From a virus: a stretch of DNA of 32,126 nucleotides. Below are positions 3,303 to 8,592 of this stretch, one piece after another; the first letter of the stretch is position 1, and the number at the start of each line of letters is the position of its first letter. The stretch spans positions 1-32,126 of the IMG/VR virus record IMGVR_UViG_3300046791_000230; one strand, 5' to 3'. The notes below the pieces were generated by a model. It saw only the letters and a program-made list of their open reading frames with translations. It searched no databases and was not told the DNA's origin. The translations under genes were made by a program, and so were the position numbers.

Positions 3303-3862
3303 TTTTAGGTTTCAAAGAATTTTTTGACGCTAAGAAAACACAACCGACTTATTTTCGGGATAAGATTCGTGCGCCTTATTTTAAGGTTTATCCTAACAGC
3401 ACTCAACCACCAGTAATAGAAATATATTATAAACCAAAACTCCACACATTCAGACTTGATCCACACGATCGCTGGAAGGCAGGCATGAGTATCCAGATGG
3501 TTTATCGTGGCCCGAAGTATAGCATCAAAGATCATTTCAATAAAGGCATTCCGGAATTAGAGAGGTGTAAGTCTACTCAGAAAGTAGAGATTAAGTGGTA
3601 TAAGGATAAAAGTTGGATTTCGGAAGCGGCTACTTTAGCTGGGATTAAATCCAAAAATGTAAAGATTAGTATTGATGGGAAGGAGTGTATTCATGTAAGT
3701 TTTAATGAAGTCGGTTTTTCTTGTGCTGGCGTTAACTATGATAGACTTATCCATGGCGACTTATTTCAGAATGATGGGTTTTATGGGGTATATGAATTTT
3801 TCAAATGGTTCAACAATGACTGGAAGGGCAAAATTATTCACTGGACAGATTTAAGATATTGA
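3299..3862 (+). CDS. ASCH-like (PUA-superfamily) phage protein
   Basis: A 187-residue protein resembling a group of Bacteroidota phage proteins that begin Met-Ile-Leu-Gly-Phe-Lys and end in a Gly-Lys-Ile-Ile-His-Trp-Thr-Asp-Leu-Arg-Tyr tail; both ends are present here. In the middle it keeps the Phe-Arg-Leu-Asp, Arg-Trp-Lys-x-Gly and Asn-Asp-Gly-Phe...Phe-Phe-x-Trp-Phe signatures. I recall this group as related to ASCH domains, which bind nucleic acid or nucleotides. The N-terminal half is longer and more divergent than the short members. It sits between an unknown helical protein and a YopX-like protein, both common phage accessory types. The biochemical activity is unknown. Confidence 0.6.
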   Translation: MILGFKEFFDAKKTQPTYFRDKIRAPYFKVYPNSTQPPVIEIYYKPKLHTFRLDPHDRWKAGMSIQMVYRGPKYSIKDHFNKGIPELERCKSTQKVEIKWYKDKSWISEAATLAGIKSKNVKISIDGKECIHVSFNEVGFSCAGVNYDRLIHGDLFQNDGFYGVYEFFKWFNNDWKGKIIHWTDLRY

Positions 3863-3864
3863 TT

Positions 3865-4242
3865 ATGGAAATTAAACTAAGAGCATTTTTAAAGTCAACA
3901 AAAAAATTCGTTCATACTAACGACTGGGCTCAGTTAGGACTTTACGGATGGAATTCATTCTTAAAGGTTTTGAGTGAAGAGCACGGATATACCCCTAAAT
4001 TAGAGTTATGGACAGGGCAAGTAGATAAAAACAAGAATGATATTTACGAGGGCGACTTACTATTACTTTCTTCTTTTAATCTCGGTACACATATAGTAAT
4101 ATTTGATAACGGTATGTTTGGAGTTAGAGAGAGAGGTTACTTCCATAGTTTTCTTGATGAGGAAATGTGGAGCATGAATATTGAGATTGTTGGTAACATA
4201 TATAAAAACACAAAACCCCCGGAGAGCAATCCGAGGGCTTGA
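3865..4242 (+). CDS. YopX-like phage protein
   Basis: I chose the ATG at 3865, 2 bases after the upstream stop, over an in-frame TTG at 3859, giving 125 residues. The pattern matches the YopX family: an N-terminal Ile-Lys-Leu-Arg-Ala-Phe, a central Leu-Trp-Thr-Gly-Gln-Val-Asp-Lys-Asn then Ile-Tyr-Glu-Gly-Asp-Leu, and a C-terminal Glu-Ile-Val-Gly-Asn-Ile-Tyr. YopX-like proteins are widespread small phage and prophage proteins of unsettled function. The last codons encode a Pro-rich tail that coincides with an RNA hairpin, so the 3' end of the gene may double as a terminator. Confidence 0.85.
   Translation: MEIKLRAFLKSTKKFVHTNDWAQLGLYGWNSFLKVLSEEHGYTPKLELWTGQVDKNKNDIYEGDLLLLSSFNLGTHIVIFDNGMFGVRERGYFHSFLDEEMWSMNIEIVGNIYKNTKPPESNPRA
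4214..4242 (+). terminator. Candidate terminator hairpin inside the end of the YopX-like gene
   Basis: CCCCCGG (4216-4222) pairs with CCGAGGG (4231-4237) around an 8-base loop, with one C-A mismatch. No good T-run follows, so it is weaker than the terminator near 2950. It may be a degenerate terminator or only a stabilising 3' hairpin. Confidence 0.4.
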
Positions 4243-4301: not shown

Positions 4302-4637
4302 ATGAAAAAATTAATATTCATATTACTGCTCATCCCCTCAGTAGCCTTTACTCAGGATTTTTACGGCCGACTCAATCGTGTGCGGATAGAAAATAACCTG
4401 CCTCCGCTTGAGGTTGACAAGAAGCTACAGCGCCAATCCGCTAAATGGCTAGAACATATCAGCCAATATCCTGGACTTGTTCACGATACGAATGTTAACG
4501 AAGTGTTATGTGAGAATGTAGAGCCGCTTCAGGCATGGTTGGCCAGCAAGGGGCACAGAAGAATACTACTCAGTAAAAAGTTTACAAAGATTGGACTAGC
4601 CAAGAATGGCAATCGTTATTGCGCGAGGTTAAAGTAA
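4302..4637 (+). CDS. Secreted CAP/SCP-like (YkwD-type) domain protein
   Basis: A 111-residue protein with a signal peptide (Met-Lys-Lys, hydrophobic core to about residue 16, then Phe-Thr-Gln). Next comes a short CAP domain: an Asn-Arg-x-Arg...Leu-Pro-Pro-Leu opening, a helix with Gln-x-Ser-Ala-Lys-Trp, a Leu-Val-His, a Cys-Glu-Asn-Val in place of the usual Gly-Glu-Asn, then Gly-His-Arg-Arg-Ile-Leu and Phe-Thr-Lys-Ile-Gly-Leu-Ala. Bacterial CAP proteins are exported and mostly of unknown activity. The domain is compact compared with many bacterial members, which have longer loops. It lies 5 bases upstream of the Thg1-like gene. Possible roles are envelope interaction, adhesion or exclusion of other phages. 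Confidence 0.78.
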   Translation: MKKLIFILLLIPSVAFTQDFYGRLNRVRIENNLPPLEVDKKLQRQSAKWLEHISQYPGLVHDTNVNEVLCENVEPLQAWLASKGHRRILLSKKFTKIGLAKNGNRYCARLK

Positions 4638-4642
4638 AAGTT

Positions 4643-5356
4643 ATGAAAGATTCACTAGGAGATAGAATGAAGGCTAATTATGAGGATAGGACTCGTATTT
4701 TCTTGCCTCGCAGAACATATACAATCATCAGGATTGACGGTAAGGCTTTCCACACCTACACCAAAGGGTTGACAAGACCATTCGATGATAAACTCATGGA
4801 AGATATGGATTCCACCGCGGCTTACCTGTGTAAGAATATTCAGGGTGCAAAATTTGCTTTTGTTCAGTCTGATGAAATTTCAGTTCTATTGACTGACTTT
4901 GATGAAATCACTACCGAAGGATGGTATGATGGAAATATTCAAAAGATGGTAAGTGTATCAGCAAGTTTAGCTACCGGAGTGTTTAATGAACTACGTCCAG
5001 GCAAACTAGCCTTCTTTGATAGTCGTGTGTTTACTATCCCGAGTAAAACTGAGGTGGAAAATTATTTCATTTGGAGACAACAGGACACCACCAGAAATAG
5101 CATTTCATCGGTAGCGCAATCGTTATATAGCCCAAAGCAATTGGAGGGGAAGAACTCTGATCAAAAGCAGGAATTAATTTTTCAAAAGGGAATTAACTGG
5201 AATGATTATGATCCAAAATATAAACGAGGTAGACTGATTGTTAAAAAAGGCTATCTAAAAGATACCGTTGAAAGAACTAAGTGGGCAATGGATGAACCAC
5301 CAGTGTTCACACAAGAGAGATACGTTTTAGGAGCGCTGATACCTGATAATGGCTAG
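4643..5356 (+). CDS. Thg1-like 3'-5' nucleotidyltransferase (tRNAHis guanylyltransferase family)
   Basis: I chose the ATG at 4643, 5 bases after the upstream stop, over the in-frame TTG at 4619; the 237-residue product then begins as bacterial homologues do. Thg1 and Thg1-like proteins add nucleotides to RNA 5' ends in the 3'-to-5' direction. They make the G-1 of tRNAHis or repair 5'-truncated tRNAs. Both metal-binding motifs are intact: Arg-Ile-Asp32-Gly-Lys-Ala-Phe, and Gln-Ser-Asp77-Glu78-Ile-Ser. The downstream Arg-Asn-Ser-Ile-Ser-Ser-Val-Ala-Gln segment also fits the family. The length is near normal. It may repair host or phage tRNAs damaged by anticodon or acceptor nucleases, or work on another RNA. 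No tRNA gene lies nearby. The TAG stop overlaps the opposing gene's stop. Confidence 0.9.
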   Translation: MKDSLGDRMKANYEDRTRIFLPRRTYTIIRIDGKAFHTYTKGLTRPFDDKLMEDMDSTAAYLCKNIQGAKFAFVQSDEISVLLTDFDEITTEGWYDGNIQKMVSVSASLATGVFNELRPGKLAFFDSRVFTIPSKTEVENYFIWRQQDTTRNSISSVAQSLYSPKQLEGKNSDQKQELIFQKGINWNDYDPKYKRGRLIVKKGYLKDTVERTKWAMDEPPVFTQERYVLGALIPDNG

Positions 5357-5871
5357 TACCCTGACTTTGATTTTTTTCTACCACGCTCCTGAGAGATACC
5401 ACCCTTTGCATCTTTGTTTCTCAAGTAATCCACTCGGATTAATTTACGCTTCGGCTGATCTCCGCCTTTCTGCCTGATTTCTTCTGCAGACATTGTAGGC
5501 TTCACCGACTTAACCGCAGGCACAATTCTTATTTTAGTTTTGGTGATTCCGATTTTGTCAGGCGTTTTTGTTTCGGTAGTTACGCCAGCGCGGTATGGCT
5601 TACCCTCTTTGTCGTAAGCAATCTCTTGCTTCTTTTTTCTTGCCTCCTCAATAAATGCAGCATCTTTTTTACTCGGGTCTTCCTTGCCATATGCAGGATG
5701 GCCGGTGTGGACACGTTTTGCTTCGTAAGATTTTGTAGTCTTCCCGCGCTCGAAAGTAAGTTCGTGCTTACCTACTTGTTCGACCTTAAATGGACGAACA
5801 GTACCTACATCAGCGGTTGCTGATTTCTTTTTCTTTTTCGGTTTTGCTAAGTTTGTTGAAACGGTTGCCAT
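5353..5871 (-). CDS. Lys-rich basic protein on the opposite strand
   Basis: This is the only convincing minus-strand gene in the window. I favour the ATG at 5871 (172 residues); an upstream ATG at 5904 would add 11 residues but run 35 bases into the next gene. The product has no Cys and is rich in Lys, Glu, Thr and Pro, with a basic run (Pro-Lys-Lys-Lys-Lys-Lys) near residues 11-16 and a Lys/Arg-rich C-terminus. It looks largely disordered and could bind nucleic acid, for example as a histone-like, packaging or early regulatory protein; this is inference. Its stop overlaps the Thg1 stop within CTAG, and its start overlaps the next gene's start within CATG. Confidence 0.65.
   Translation of the reverse strand: MATVSTNLAKPKKKKKSATADVGTVRPFKVEQVGKHELTFERGKTTKSYEAKRVHTGHPAYGKEDPSKKDAAFIEEARKKKQEIAYDKEGKPYRAGVTTETKTPDKIGITKTKIRIVPAVKSVKPTMSAEEIRQKGGDQPKRKLIRVDYLRNKDAKGGISQERGRKKSKSGY
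5848..5855 (+). promoter_or_regulatory. Candidate -7 promoter box for the packaging operon
   Basis: TAAGTTTG is a full match to the Bacteroidota -7 consensus TAnnTTTG and lies 14 bases before the presumed small terminase ATG at 5870. No TTG is found at the ideal -33 distance, and a T-rich tract precedes it instead. It falls inside the 5' end of the opposing Lys-rich gene, the only place a promoter for the packaging genes could sit. Confidence 0.35.
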
Positions 5872-6385
5872 GGCGTTGTCATTTAAAGATTGGGATATTT
5901 GCAAGAATTTCTCTCATAAAGATAAGGGAAAAATACTTTCGACCATCGATTTGCTTTTTAACAAGAAATCGGAACTCAACAAAATCCAGAACTTCGATGA
6001 GAGAAAAAAGCAGGCTTGCATACAGGCTGGACTAAAATCTATTGATTTGCTAGAGGAAGAGAAGGTAAAAGACCTTATTTTCAACTACCTGAGCTACTAC
6101 CAGAACTCGAACGAGTTCCAACTACTGATCAACGACCAGCAACTATTTTGGAATCTGCAACGGGAAATGATGAGACCATTCCCAACAGAAAATGATGAAA
6201 TTGAGGACGCATCGGATTATAAATTAAAGATATCCAAGCAATCGGCTGAATTATTAGCCAGGATAAAAGTAAGGTTTGCCGAATTATACAATACCGAGCA
6301 GATTGGGCCAGAAACGGTTGAGTTGATTGAGACCAAAATAAGGGTATTGCGCCCAGAAGATAGGGTAACGAAACAGAGCCCGTAA
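5870..6385 (+). CDS. Presumed terminase small subunit
   Basis: A 171-residue soluble, mainly helical, charged protein without a motif I can name. The assignment is by position: it sits directly upstream of the large terminase, with a TAATG stop-start overlap (one base shared), where tailed phages usually place the DNA-recognition small subunit. Size and helical content fit. The ATG at 5870 overlaps the start codon of the opposite-strand gene. Alternatives are a packaging accessory or unknown early gene fused to the operon. Confidence 0.5.
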   Translation: MALSFKDWDICKNFSHKDKGKILSTIDLLFNKKSELNKIQNFDERKKQACIQAGLKSIDLLEEEKVKDLIFNYLSYYQNSNEFQLLINDQQLFWNLQREMMRPFPTENDEIEDASDYKLKISKQSAELLARIKVRFAELYNTEQIGPETVELIETKIRVLRPEDRVTKQSP

Positions 6386-8592
6386 TGTTCACGCCCACCA
6401 CCAACGAATATGTTTTTAAGTATTTAGTAACCGGTATTAGCGGGCTGGGCATGCATCATGTCTATTTACCCGAGCAACCGCCAGAAGAACAAATATTATT
6501 CAAGGAGGAACAAAAGTTTGTTCGTCCTGAGATGGAGGACTACCTAAAGAAGGCCACAAGGATACTTTATCAAAAGAGTAATGCGGCACACCCAAGCTAT
6601 GACCAATCATTTATAAGCCCATATGCAAAGCAAATTCAAGACTGGGTTGACAGGGAGTGGAAGCGTACTGAGGAAGGAATTTGGTTTTGGAACAACGGAA
6701 CAGCGACTTATGTAACGCCATTTTATTATTTCTACCTGTGCGCCTGGACACCATATTTTGGGAAGCCAGATTATAGGGAAACTGACAAGGAAATATCATA
6801 TGCGATTGCCTATGTAGAAAATGATCCTGATTCGTTCGGGATTCTATTCAACTCCCTCAGACGTTACGGTAAGTCGGCCATCATGGGTGCTTGGATTATT
6901 TACAGGACCATCCGGAATAAAATGCACTTCTCTGGGATGCAGGGAGAAACGGATCCTAAAATCGGAGCCTTCTACGACTTACACATTTTAAAGCCATTCA
7001 GTAAACTTGAACCGTACTACCAACCAGACTACAATACAAATACACTTCTTACCGATGGGATTAAGTTCACCTACTCCCCAAAACGCGGTAAGAAACTAAA
7101 TGCGATCGACATCGAAGATTTTGACTTTTTGGAGTCAGAGTTGGACTATCGCCCATCAGGGGAAGGTGCTTATGACCAAGCTGTGCTGCACTCGTACCTC
7201 ATGGAGGAGCCAGGGAAAACCTTGGTTGCAAACGTAAATGAGCGGTGGAAGACTGTAAAGCCATGTTTGAAGCGCGGGCGATTCATCCGTGGAAAGGCCT
7301 TTTTAGCCACAACTGTTGAATTTATGGATACCGCCAAGCGAGGTGGTAAGGCCTATAAAAAATTATTTTTTGAGTCGGACTTCGACAAACGTAACCCAGA
7401 CGGTAGAACAAAATCAGGGCTTTATGTTATTTTTCTTCCTGCAGATTGCGGACTAGAAGGATTTTTTGATGAGTGGGGTCATCCGGTTCGTGAGAAAGCG
7501 CGCGAGTTCATTATGAATGAACGCTCAGCATCAGAAGATGACCCGAAGGATTACGCGGATATCATCCGGAAGTACCCGTTAAGTATTTCTGAAATTTTCT
7601 ACGTCAACACCGTTCATTGCGAGTTTAATGCAAAAATCCTTCAGGACCGCAAAGCAGAGATCGACATGAGTGTGGAGCCCATGTTTTCAAAGTTCGAATT
7701 GAAGTGGGAAAATAATGTAAGGTTCTCAAAGATCGTTGCCACCCATAACCCAACAACAGGTTGGCTGAAAGCAGCCTGGCTACCGACTGATCCAGCAAAA
7801 GATTGCAATCTTGTCGATGTGCAATATGCAGGAGGAGAAAAAAATTACATTCCGCTGAATGATCTTAAAATAGCCATTGGGATGGACCCGATTGACCACG
7901 GTATGGTTGTCGAGGATGGCGATAGTTCAGATGATGAGTTTGTGAGCGTGAAGCGATCGCGGCCAGTCGTTACCGTGAAACTCAAGTGGGATTCTTCAGT
8001 AGATGGCGCTATTGATCAGGATGAACTTATCCGGAGAGCCAAGAAAGGCAGGATGGATGGCGACACGTGGGTTTTGGATGAAAACGGAAAGAAATACCAG
8101 TGGAAAACTAACCGGTATGTGTGCATGATGGATGTTCGTCCGTATGACCCGAATGTGCTTTACGAGCGCGCATTAATGATTTGCTGGTATTTTGGAGCAT
8201 CACTGCATGCGGAAAGTAACAAACCTGGGGTTATCCGGTATTTCAATGAACACGGGTGCGGGGCTTTCATTCTGAATAAATTTATTCCTTTAGAGAAAAA
8301 ACGAGTAAATCCATACGATGAAGGAACGCCAGCCAGTACATTAATCATCAGTGAGTACACTGGGGAAATTTCTACTTACGTGGAATACTTCGGGCACACG
8401 ATTCCATTCCTGGAAATTGTGGAAGACTTACTTCATTTCAAACCAAATAAAACTCGGGAGCATGACTATACGGTATCCGTTGGCTTTACAGAATTGGCCT
8501 GTAAAATGAAACCAAAAAATCAACCGAAGACGTATATTGACATCAGCGAAATCATGCCTCTTTTTGATGGTCGCGGAAATGTCATAAATTGA
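6385..8592 (+). CDS. terL: Terminase large subunit (packaging ATPase-nuclease)
   Basis: A 735-residue motor protein that cuts concatemeric DNA and pumps it through the portal. The N-terminal ATPase part shows a Walker A-like loop Arg-Arg-Tyr-Gly-Lys-Ser with the Gly at 162, and a likely Walker B region around Leu-Met-Glu274-Glu275-Pro-Gly-Lys. The C-terminal RuvC-like nuclease part opens with Ala-Ile-Gly-Met-Asp501-Pro, and a late acidic residue, about Asp694 in His-Asp-Tyr-Thr, is in the right place for the third metal ligand. The length is long, as in crAss-like and other Bacteroidota podoviruses. It is followed by the portal gene after a 31-base gap. Assignment of Walker B and the last acidic residue is by eye. 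Confidence 0.88.
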   Translation: MFTPTTNEYVFKYLVTGISGLGMHHVYLPEQPPEEQILFKEEQKFVRPEMEDYLKKATRILYQKSNAAHPSYDQSFISPYAKQIQDWVDREWKRTEEGIWFWNNGTATYVTPFYYFYLCAWTPYFGKPDYRETDKEISYAIAYVENDPDSFGILFNSLRRYGKSAIMGAWIIYRTIRNKMHFSGMQGETDPKIGAFYDLHILKPFSKLEPYYQPDYNTNTLLTDGIKFTYSPKRGKKLNAIDIEDFDFLESELDYRPSGEGAYDQAVLHSYLMEEPGKTLVANVNERWKTVKPCLKRGRFIRGKAFLATTVEFMDTAKRGGKAYKKLFFESDFDKRNPDGRTKSGLYVIFLPADCGLEGFFDEWGHPVREKAREFIMNERSASEDDPKDYADIIRKYPLSISEIFYVNTVHCEFNAKILQDRKAEIDMSVEPMFSKFELKWENNVRFSKIVATHNPTTGWLKAAWLPTDPAKDCNLVDVQYAGGEKNYIPLNDLKIAIGMDPIDHGMVVEDGDSSDDEFVSVKRSRPVVTVKLKWDSSVDGAIDQDELIRRAKKGRMDGDTWVLDENGKKYQWKTNRYVCMMDVRPYDPNVLYERALMICWYFGASLHAESNKPGVIRYFNEHGCGAFILNKFIPLEKKRVNPYDEGTPASTLIISEYTGEISTYVEYFGHTIPFLEIVEDLLHFKPNKTREHDYTVSVGFTELACKMKPKNQPKTYIDISEIMPLFDGRGNVIN

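What the first reader, a model, noticed from the sequence alone, without database searches (positions are those of the whole stretch)
4643..5356. Phage-encoded Thg1-like 3'-5' polymerase with intact metal site
The gene keeps both carboxylate motifs (Asp32; Asp77/Glu78) and the full family length. Thg1 family members extend RNA 5' ends in reverse direction and can repair truncated tRNAs. In a phage it could counter a host defence that damages tRNAs, restore tRNAHis during host shut-off, or act on a phage RNA. No tRNA gene is nearby, so the substrate must come from the host or from elsewhere in the genome. It sits beside a PUA/ASCH-like gene and a CAP gene in an accessory block, typical of counter-defence cargo.
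Basis: partly seen in the sequence, partly recalled or inferred. Interest (0 to 1): 0.65.

Follow-up and report, generated by a model that had tools for sequence, protein, structure and literature searches.

The report
Phage tRNA 5'-end repair polymerase
This virus of a Bacteroidota bacterium carries an intact member of a rare enzyme family that adds nucleotides to the front end of RNA, most likely to mend damaged host tRNAs; many other phages carry relatives, so it is a new example of a known kind.

Summary
Window 4643-5356 (+) encodes a 237-aa Thg1-like protein (TLP) with Asp32, Asp77 and Glu78 intact. It matches Pfam Thg1 (E=1.6e-25), PHROG 4717 (2.6e-85) and the Bacillus thuringiensis TLP structure (1e-65); its predicted fold matches that structure at TM about 0.9. 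It is not new in kind: 127 phage records hold relatives, and tRNA repair by phage Thg1 has been proposed in print (2010, 2021).

What I add. (1) It is accessory cargo: a colinear 77-kb relative has the same flanking genes with no TLP between them. (2) It lacks the eukaryotic HINNLYN motif used to recognise tRNAHis, and TLPs occur in only 5 of 395 Bacteroidota genomes, so tRNAHis maturation is unlikely. (3) Its nearest relatives lie in cellular RNA-repair islands (RNA ligases, RtcB, KptA, Ro60/TROVE, macro, tRNA arrays). One phage relative overlaps RlaP, which overlaps a CCA-adding-like gene. (4) RNA ligases occur in 25/36 large TLP+ viral contigs against 7/27 TLP- ones (p=9e-4).

Best reading: a template-dependent polymerase that rebuilds 5'-shortened tRNAs, here the host's, because the 32-kb record has no tRNA gene. 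The 'PUA/ASCH' neighbour is YopX. Substrate and in vivo role remain untested.

The parts
4643..5356 (+). Thg1-like protein (TLP), 237 aa; metal-site residues D32, D77, E78; R30, S76, K101, R128 at the ScThg1 R27, S75, K96, R133 positions; R45 at the ScThg1 K44 / BtTLP K43 position
4302..4637 (+). CAP-domain gene (probable signal peptide), 5 nt upstream of the TLP start; present in the TLP-less relative L494, so a core gene of this phage group; left border of the insertion
5353..5904 (-). Convergent ORF of unknown function overlapping the TLP stop by 4 nt; its homologue in L494 (2725-3213) directly follows CAP; right border of the insertion
5870..6385 (+). Conserved gene just before the large terminase (42% identical in L494)
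3859..4242 (+).
6385..8592 (+). Large terminase; relatives in Flavobacterium and Cellulophaga phages (27% identity) and in L494 (52%)

Best explanation
The gene encodes a catalytically competent bacterial-type Thg1-like protein, carried as accessory cargo by a tailed phage of a Bacteroidota host. It most likely repairs tRNAs during infection. It activates the 5' end of a 5'-shortened tRNA with ATP or GTP, then adds the missing nucleotides in the 3'-5' direction, using the intact 3' strand of the acceptor stem as template, so that damaged host tRNAs work again. In other phages and in some Bacteroidota this enzyme is the 5'-end member of a tRNA-mending toolkit: RNA ligases seal breaks, and RlaP and CCA-adding enzymes restore lost 3' nucleotides. 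Shown here: identity, fold, metal site, accessory position, and the RNA-repair context of its closest relatives. Inferred: activity, substrate, host tRNAs as target, and counter-defence as the selective reason.
For: Family, fold and metal site. Bacterial and archaeal TLPs tested so far prefer 5'-truncated tRNAs over full-length tRNAHis (review PMC6471195); the window protein lacks the eukaryotic HINNLYN motif (DTTRNSIS in its place), so it is of that class. In the tree it groups (91/84, short of the starred level) with four Bacteroidota TLPs, L078-L081. L078 lies in an island with TROVE/Ro60, a DRB0094-type and a T4 Rnl1-type RNA ligase, macro, RtcB, ADP-ribosylglycohydrolase, KptA and 11 tRNA genes. 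In L079 and L080 an RNA ligase starts about 40-130 nt downstream of the TLP, followed by tRNA arrays. Viral relatives: L007 carries CCA-adding-like, RlaP and TLP genes, each overlapping the next by 4 nt; in L003 a ligase abuts TLP; L012/14/15/16/20/83 have an RNA ligase within 1.4 kb upstream. RNA ligases (PF09414 or PF09511 over cut-off) in 25/36 TLP+ against 7/27 TLP- viral contigs over 59 kb, Fisher p=9e-4; for PF09414 alone the length-adjusted odds ratio is 6.5, p=0.002. tRNA genes in 26/36 against 11/27, p=0.02.
Against: No RNA ligase, RlaP, PNK or tRNA gene was recognised in the window, though it is a 32-kb fragment; the 77-kb relative has no tRNA either. Most TLP loci, and most of the eight named phages inspected, have no repair gene directly beside TLP. 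Six of 36 large TLP+ contigs showed neither a tRNA gene nor a PF09414 ligase; one of these has a PF09511 ligase. I know of no phage-defence nuclease that trims tRNA 5' ends. ScThg1 K44 / BtTLP K43, used for ATP-dependent activation, is Arg here (also in about 60% of relatives), so activation may differ.
Confidence: 0.68

Rival explanations
1. tRNAHis maturase: the phage enzyme adds or restores G-1 on tRNAHis, keeping histidine charging going during host shut-off.
For: Family name and annotation in phage records. BtTLP can add nucleotides at -1 and supports a yeast thg1 deletion (PMC6471195). One TLP+ viral contig (L062) has a tRNAHis gene with C73 and no encoded G-1.
Against: The tRNAHis-recognition motif HINNLYN is absent. 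8 of 11 tRNAHis genes in TLP+ loci encode G-1. TLP occurs in only 5/395 sampled Bacteroidota genomes, so hosts of this phylum do not normally need it. No tRNAHis gene is in the window.
Confidence: 0.1
2. Editing enzyme for mis-encoded tRNA 5' ends, as in Dictyostelium and other protist mitochondria: it replaces mismatched acceptor-stem 5' nucleotides of phage or host tRNAs.
For: Mechanistically within TLP ability; tRNA arrays lie near several relatives; the tRNAHis of L056 has a 1:72 mismatch.
Against: In 157 tRNAs found in TLP+ loci, mismatches are not enriched at the 5' end: 7 at positions 1-3 against 12 at positions 5-7. Neither the window nor its relative L494 has tRNAs.
Confidence: 0.05
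3. It acts on another RNA or makes activated 5' ends (App-RNA or Gpp-RNA), for example priming RNA ends for ligation or protecting a phage transcript.
For: Thg1 enzymes form 5'-adenylylated intermediates; Anantharaman et al. 2010 (PMC2904730) proposed ligation through a 5' App. RNA ligases are genetic neighbours of relatives.
Against: No structured RNA family was found in the window; characterised TLPs act on tRNA-like substrates (PMC6471195).
Confidence: 0.12
4. Passenger gene: picked up recently from a Bacteroidota repair island or another phage and of little use to this phage.
For: Absent from the colinear relative; GC3 of 0.36 against 0.42-0.49 in core genes.
Against: Full length with no stop, catalytic residues kept, high-confidence fold. 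The family recurs in 127 phage records and in 2/29 randomly sampled large viral contigs.
Confidence: 0.05

Closest known systems
Bacillus thuringiensis TLP (PDB 4KGK / 4KGM)
   Same: Same length and fold (TM about 0.9, about 46% identity in the structural alignment), same metal-site residues, same absence of HINNLYN
   Different: Arg45 in place of BtTLP Lys43 (the residue linked to ATP activation); carried by a phage of a Bacteroidota host
PHROG 4717 phage 'tRNA-His guanylyltransferase' (Bacillus phages Eldridge, BM15, FADO; Xanthomonas phage XacN1; Bacillus phage G)
   Same: Same family, full-length similarity at 47-53% identity
   Different: Those phages are large (150-500 kb; XacN1 has 56 tRNA genes, PMC5852040); the window belongs to a smaller, apparently tRNA-less phage group (relative L494, 77 kb)
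TLP of Bacteroidota RNA-repair islands (Xanthocytophaga flavus L078 and relatives L079-L081)
   Same: About 73% identical, nearest group in the tree
   Different: Those are cellular, next to RNA ligases, RtcB, KptA, TROVE and tRNA arrays; the window gene sits alone between CAP and a convergent ORF
Phage tRNA-repair genes (T4 Pnkp/Rnl1 against PrrC; RNA ligases and RlaP of jumbo phages)
   Same: Same proposed purpose: mending tRNAs damaged during infection
   Different: Acts on 5' ends by reverse polymerisation, not by sealing anticodon-loop breaks; no defence nuclease is known for it
Eukaryotic Thg1 (human, yeast, Candida)
   Same: Same superfamily and catalytic core (TM 0.68-0.81)
   Different: Window protein lacks HINNLYN; about 20-27% identity

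Membership tests
Thg1/TLP superfamily of 3'-5' polymerases | Thg1 catalytic domain by profile | tested here: met
   PF04446 90 bits (cut-off 29.2) and PF14413 27 bits (cut-off 26.3)
Thg1/TLP superfamily of 3'-5' polymerases | Two-metal carboxylate site (ScThg1 D29, D76, E77) | tested here: met
   D32, D77, E78 aligned to them
Thg1/TLP superfamily of 3'-5' polymerases | Activation and transfer residues (ScThg1 R27, K44, S75, K96, R133) | tested here: inconclusive
   R30, S76, K101, R128 present in nearly all relatives; the K44 position is Arg45. The K96 and R133 correspondences were read from the alignment, not tested
Thg1/TLP superfamily of 3'-5' polymerases | Fold of solved Thg1/TLP structures | tested here: met
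   Top 32 PDB matches are all Thg1/TLP, best TM 0.90-0.93
Thg1/TLP superfamily of 3'-5' polymerases | 3'-5' nucleotide addition activity | not testable with these tools
   Needs a purified protein assay
Bona fide eukaryotic Thg1 (tRNAHis guanylyltransferase) | HINNLYN motif for tRNAHis recognition | tested here: not met
   Residues 148-155 are DTTRNSIS; no relative has the His
Bacterial-type TLP | Closest to BtTLP, no HINNLYN | tested here: met
   4kgk is the best PDB sequence match (1e-65) and the 4kgm/4kgk chains are the best fold matches
Bacterial-type TLP | Preference for 5'-truncated tRNA repair | not testable with these tools
   Known for tested TLPs (PMC6471195); not assayed for this protein
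Phage RNA-repair system | Repair partner genes (ligase, RlaP, CCA enzyme, PNK) in the same genome | tested here: inconclusive
   None recognised in the 32-kb window, which is probably a fragment; enriched in relatives

The most novel reading that the evidence does not exclude
The TLP is the 5'-end arm of a modular phage tRNA-rebuilding kit (CCA-adding enzyme for the 3' end, RlaP plus ligase for internal breaks, TLP for the 5' end). It exists because some Bacteroidota defence, not yet described, removes nucleotides from tRNA 5' ends.
Probability: 0.2. Interest if true: 0.65.

Novelty: new member of a known kind. Interest (0 to 1): 0.35.

Why it matters
The natural substrates of bacterial TLPs are unknown (PMC6471195). 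A single-gene TLP insertion in a phage with no detected tRNA gene, next to a natural relative that lacks it, gives a clean deletion/complementation test of what TLPs do in cells and whether tRNA 5' ends are attacked during phage infection.

Tried and rejected
Encoded 5'-mismatch editing: tested on 157 tRNAs in TLP+ loci, no 5' excess of acceptor-stem mismatches. G-1 addition as the main role: disfavoured by motif, host distribution and encoded G-1, but L062, L056 and L065 tRNAHis genes are exceptions. PUA/ASCH neighbour: not supported, it is YopX. CAP as accessory cargo: not supported, it is in the TLP-less relative. A terminase scan for close relatives in viral contigs found none; the capsid scan found two. 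The NCBIfam search gave no hit. The Burroughs and Aravind 2016 paper, relevant prior work, is not held in the library, so it was not read.

Full report
What is there. The ORF 4643-5356 (+) is a 237-aa Thg1-like protein. It matches Pfam Thg1 (E=1.6e-25) and Thg1C, PHROG 4717 'tRNA-His guanylyltransferase' (2.6e-85) and the B. thuringiensis TLP of PDB 4kgk (1e-65). The metal-site residues Asp32, Asp77 and Glu78 are present and conserved in 87/88, 88/88 and 88/88 aligned sequences. The AlphaFold model (pLDDT 94.3) matches 4kgm/4kgk at TM about 0.9, and the 32 best PDB matches are all Thg1/TLP.

It is not a new kind. 127 of 50,697 public phage records hold a relative, and 2 of 29 large viral contigs sampled by random short words do too. 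Anantharaman, Iyer and Aravind (PMC2904730) noted a phage Thg1 and its neighbourhood with PNK, macro and RNA ligase genes, and proposed RNA repair. Iyer et al. 2021 (PMC7824862) list Thg1 among jumbo-phage RNA-repair genes. Bacterial TLPs in vitro prefer 5'-truncated tRNAs (review PMC6471195).

Position. The window is one whole 32,126-bp virus record whose terminase is related to Flavobacterium and Cellulophaga phages. A colinear relative, L494 (77 kb; capsid 64%, terminase 52%, portal 52%), has CAP, then a convergent ORF overlapping the CAP stop, then the homologue of 5870-6385, then terminase. In the window TLP lies exactly between CAP and the homologous convergent ORF. L494 has no TLP and no tRNA elsewhere. 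TLP has GC3 0.36 against 0.42-0.49 for core genes. The other neighbour is YopX, not PUA/ASCH.

Relatives point to RNA repair. In a tree the window protein groups (91/84, not at the starred level) with four Bacteroidota TLPs. One, in Xanthocytophaga flavus (L078), lies in an island with TROVE/Ro60, two ATP-type RNA ligases, macro, RtcB, ADP-ribosylglycohydrolase, KptA and 11 tRNA genes. In L079 and L080 a DRB0094-type RNA ligase follows TLP closely and tRNA arrays come next. In viral L007 a CCA-adding-like gene, an RlaP gene and TLP overlap by 4 nt each. In viral L003 an RNA ligase abuts TLP. A second ligase type lies upstream in a group of six loci.

Size-matched comparison. Among viral contigs over 59 kb, RNA ligases (PF09414 or PF09511) occur in 25/36 TLP+ and 7/27 TLP- records (p=9e-4). 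For PF09414 alone, adjusting for contig length, the odds ratio is 6.5 (p=0.002). tRNA genes occur in 26/36 against 11/27 (p=0.02), median 6 against 0. Caveats: the TLP+ set was retrieved by similarity to this protein, related contigs are not independent, and contigs may be incomplete.

Against other roles. The eukaryotic HINNLYN motif is missing. TLP occurs in 5 of 395 sampled Bacteroidota genomes, so hosts rarely have it. Of 11 tRNAHis genes in TLP+ loci, 8 encode G-1; L062 (C73, no G-1), L056 (1:72 mismatch) and L065 do not. Acceptor-stem mismatches are not concentrated at the 5' end: 7 at positions 1-3, 12 at positions 5-7 in 157 tRNAs. General G-1 addition or mitochondrial-type editing is therefore unlikely.

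Mechanism proposed. The 5' end of a shortened tRNA is activated with ATP or GTP and extended 3'-5' against the 3' strand of the acceptor stem. In this phage the targets would be host tRNAs, since no tRNA gene was found. Shown: identity, fold, metal site, accessory position, and repair context in relatives. Inferred: activity, substrate and the counter-defence purpose. Weak points: no repair partner was recognised in the window, adjacency to repair genes is a minority pattern in named phages, no 5'-trimming defence is known to me, and Arg45 replaces the lysine used for ATP activation in BtTLP.

Noticed in passing
L078:588-15410 (Xanthocytophaga flavus contig): Dense cellular RNA-repair island: TROVE/Ro60, 11 tRNA genes, two ATP-type RNA ligases, an unknown 265-aa gene also next to TLP in L081, macro, TLP, RtcB, ADP-ribosylglycohydrolase, DUF1152, KptA.
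   Followed up: partly
L079:12055-13077 and L080:12017-18540: tRNA arrays (7 and 17 genes) near TLP, an RNA ligase and a WYL regulator in Bacteroidota genomes; L080 also has TROVE and an SPFH gene.
   Followed up: partly
L007:640-3808: Viral CCA-adding-like, RlaP and TLP genes, each overlapping the next by 4 nt: three nucleotidyltransferases in one apparent operon.
   Followed up: yes
L017, L029, L031-L033, L052, L063, L070, L075 and related viral contigs: TLP of a group of large phages lies near a NAMPT-like gene, a PRPP-synthetase-like gene, a macro-like gene and, in some, NADAR, that is, NAD-related genes.
   Followed up: partly
L062:12703-12777; L056:18336-18412; L065:13713-13786: tRNAHis genes without encoded G-1 (L062 has C73) or with a 1:72 mismatch (L056) in TLP+ viral contigs: candidate substrates for G-1 addition or 5' editing.
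   Followed up: no
L058 TLP, position aligned to Asp32: One viral relative has Gly in place of the first metal-site Asp; it may be inactive or misaligned.
   Followed up: no
L011:1625-10942: 24 tRNA genes around TLP in a 223-kb viral contig, including two that ARAGORN calls tRNA-SeC with anticodon TCA (possible suppressors or miscalls).
   Followed up: no
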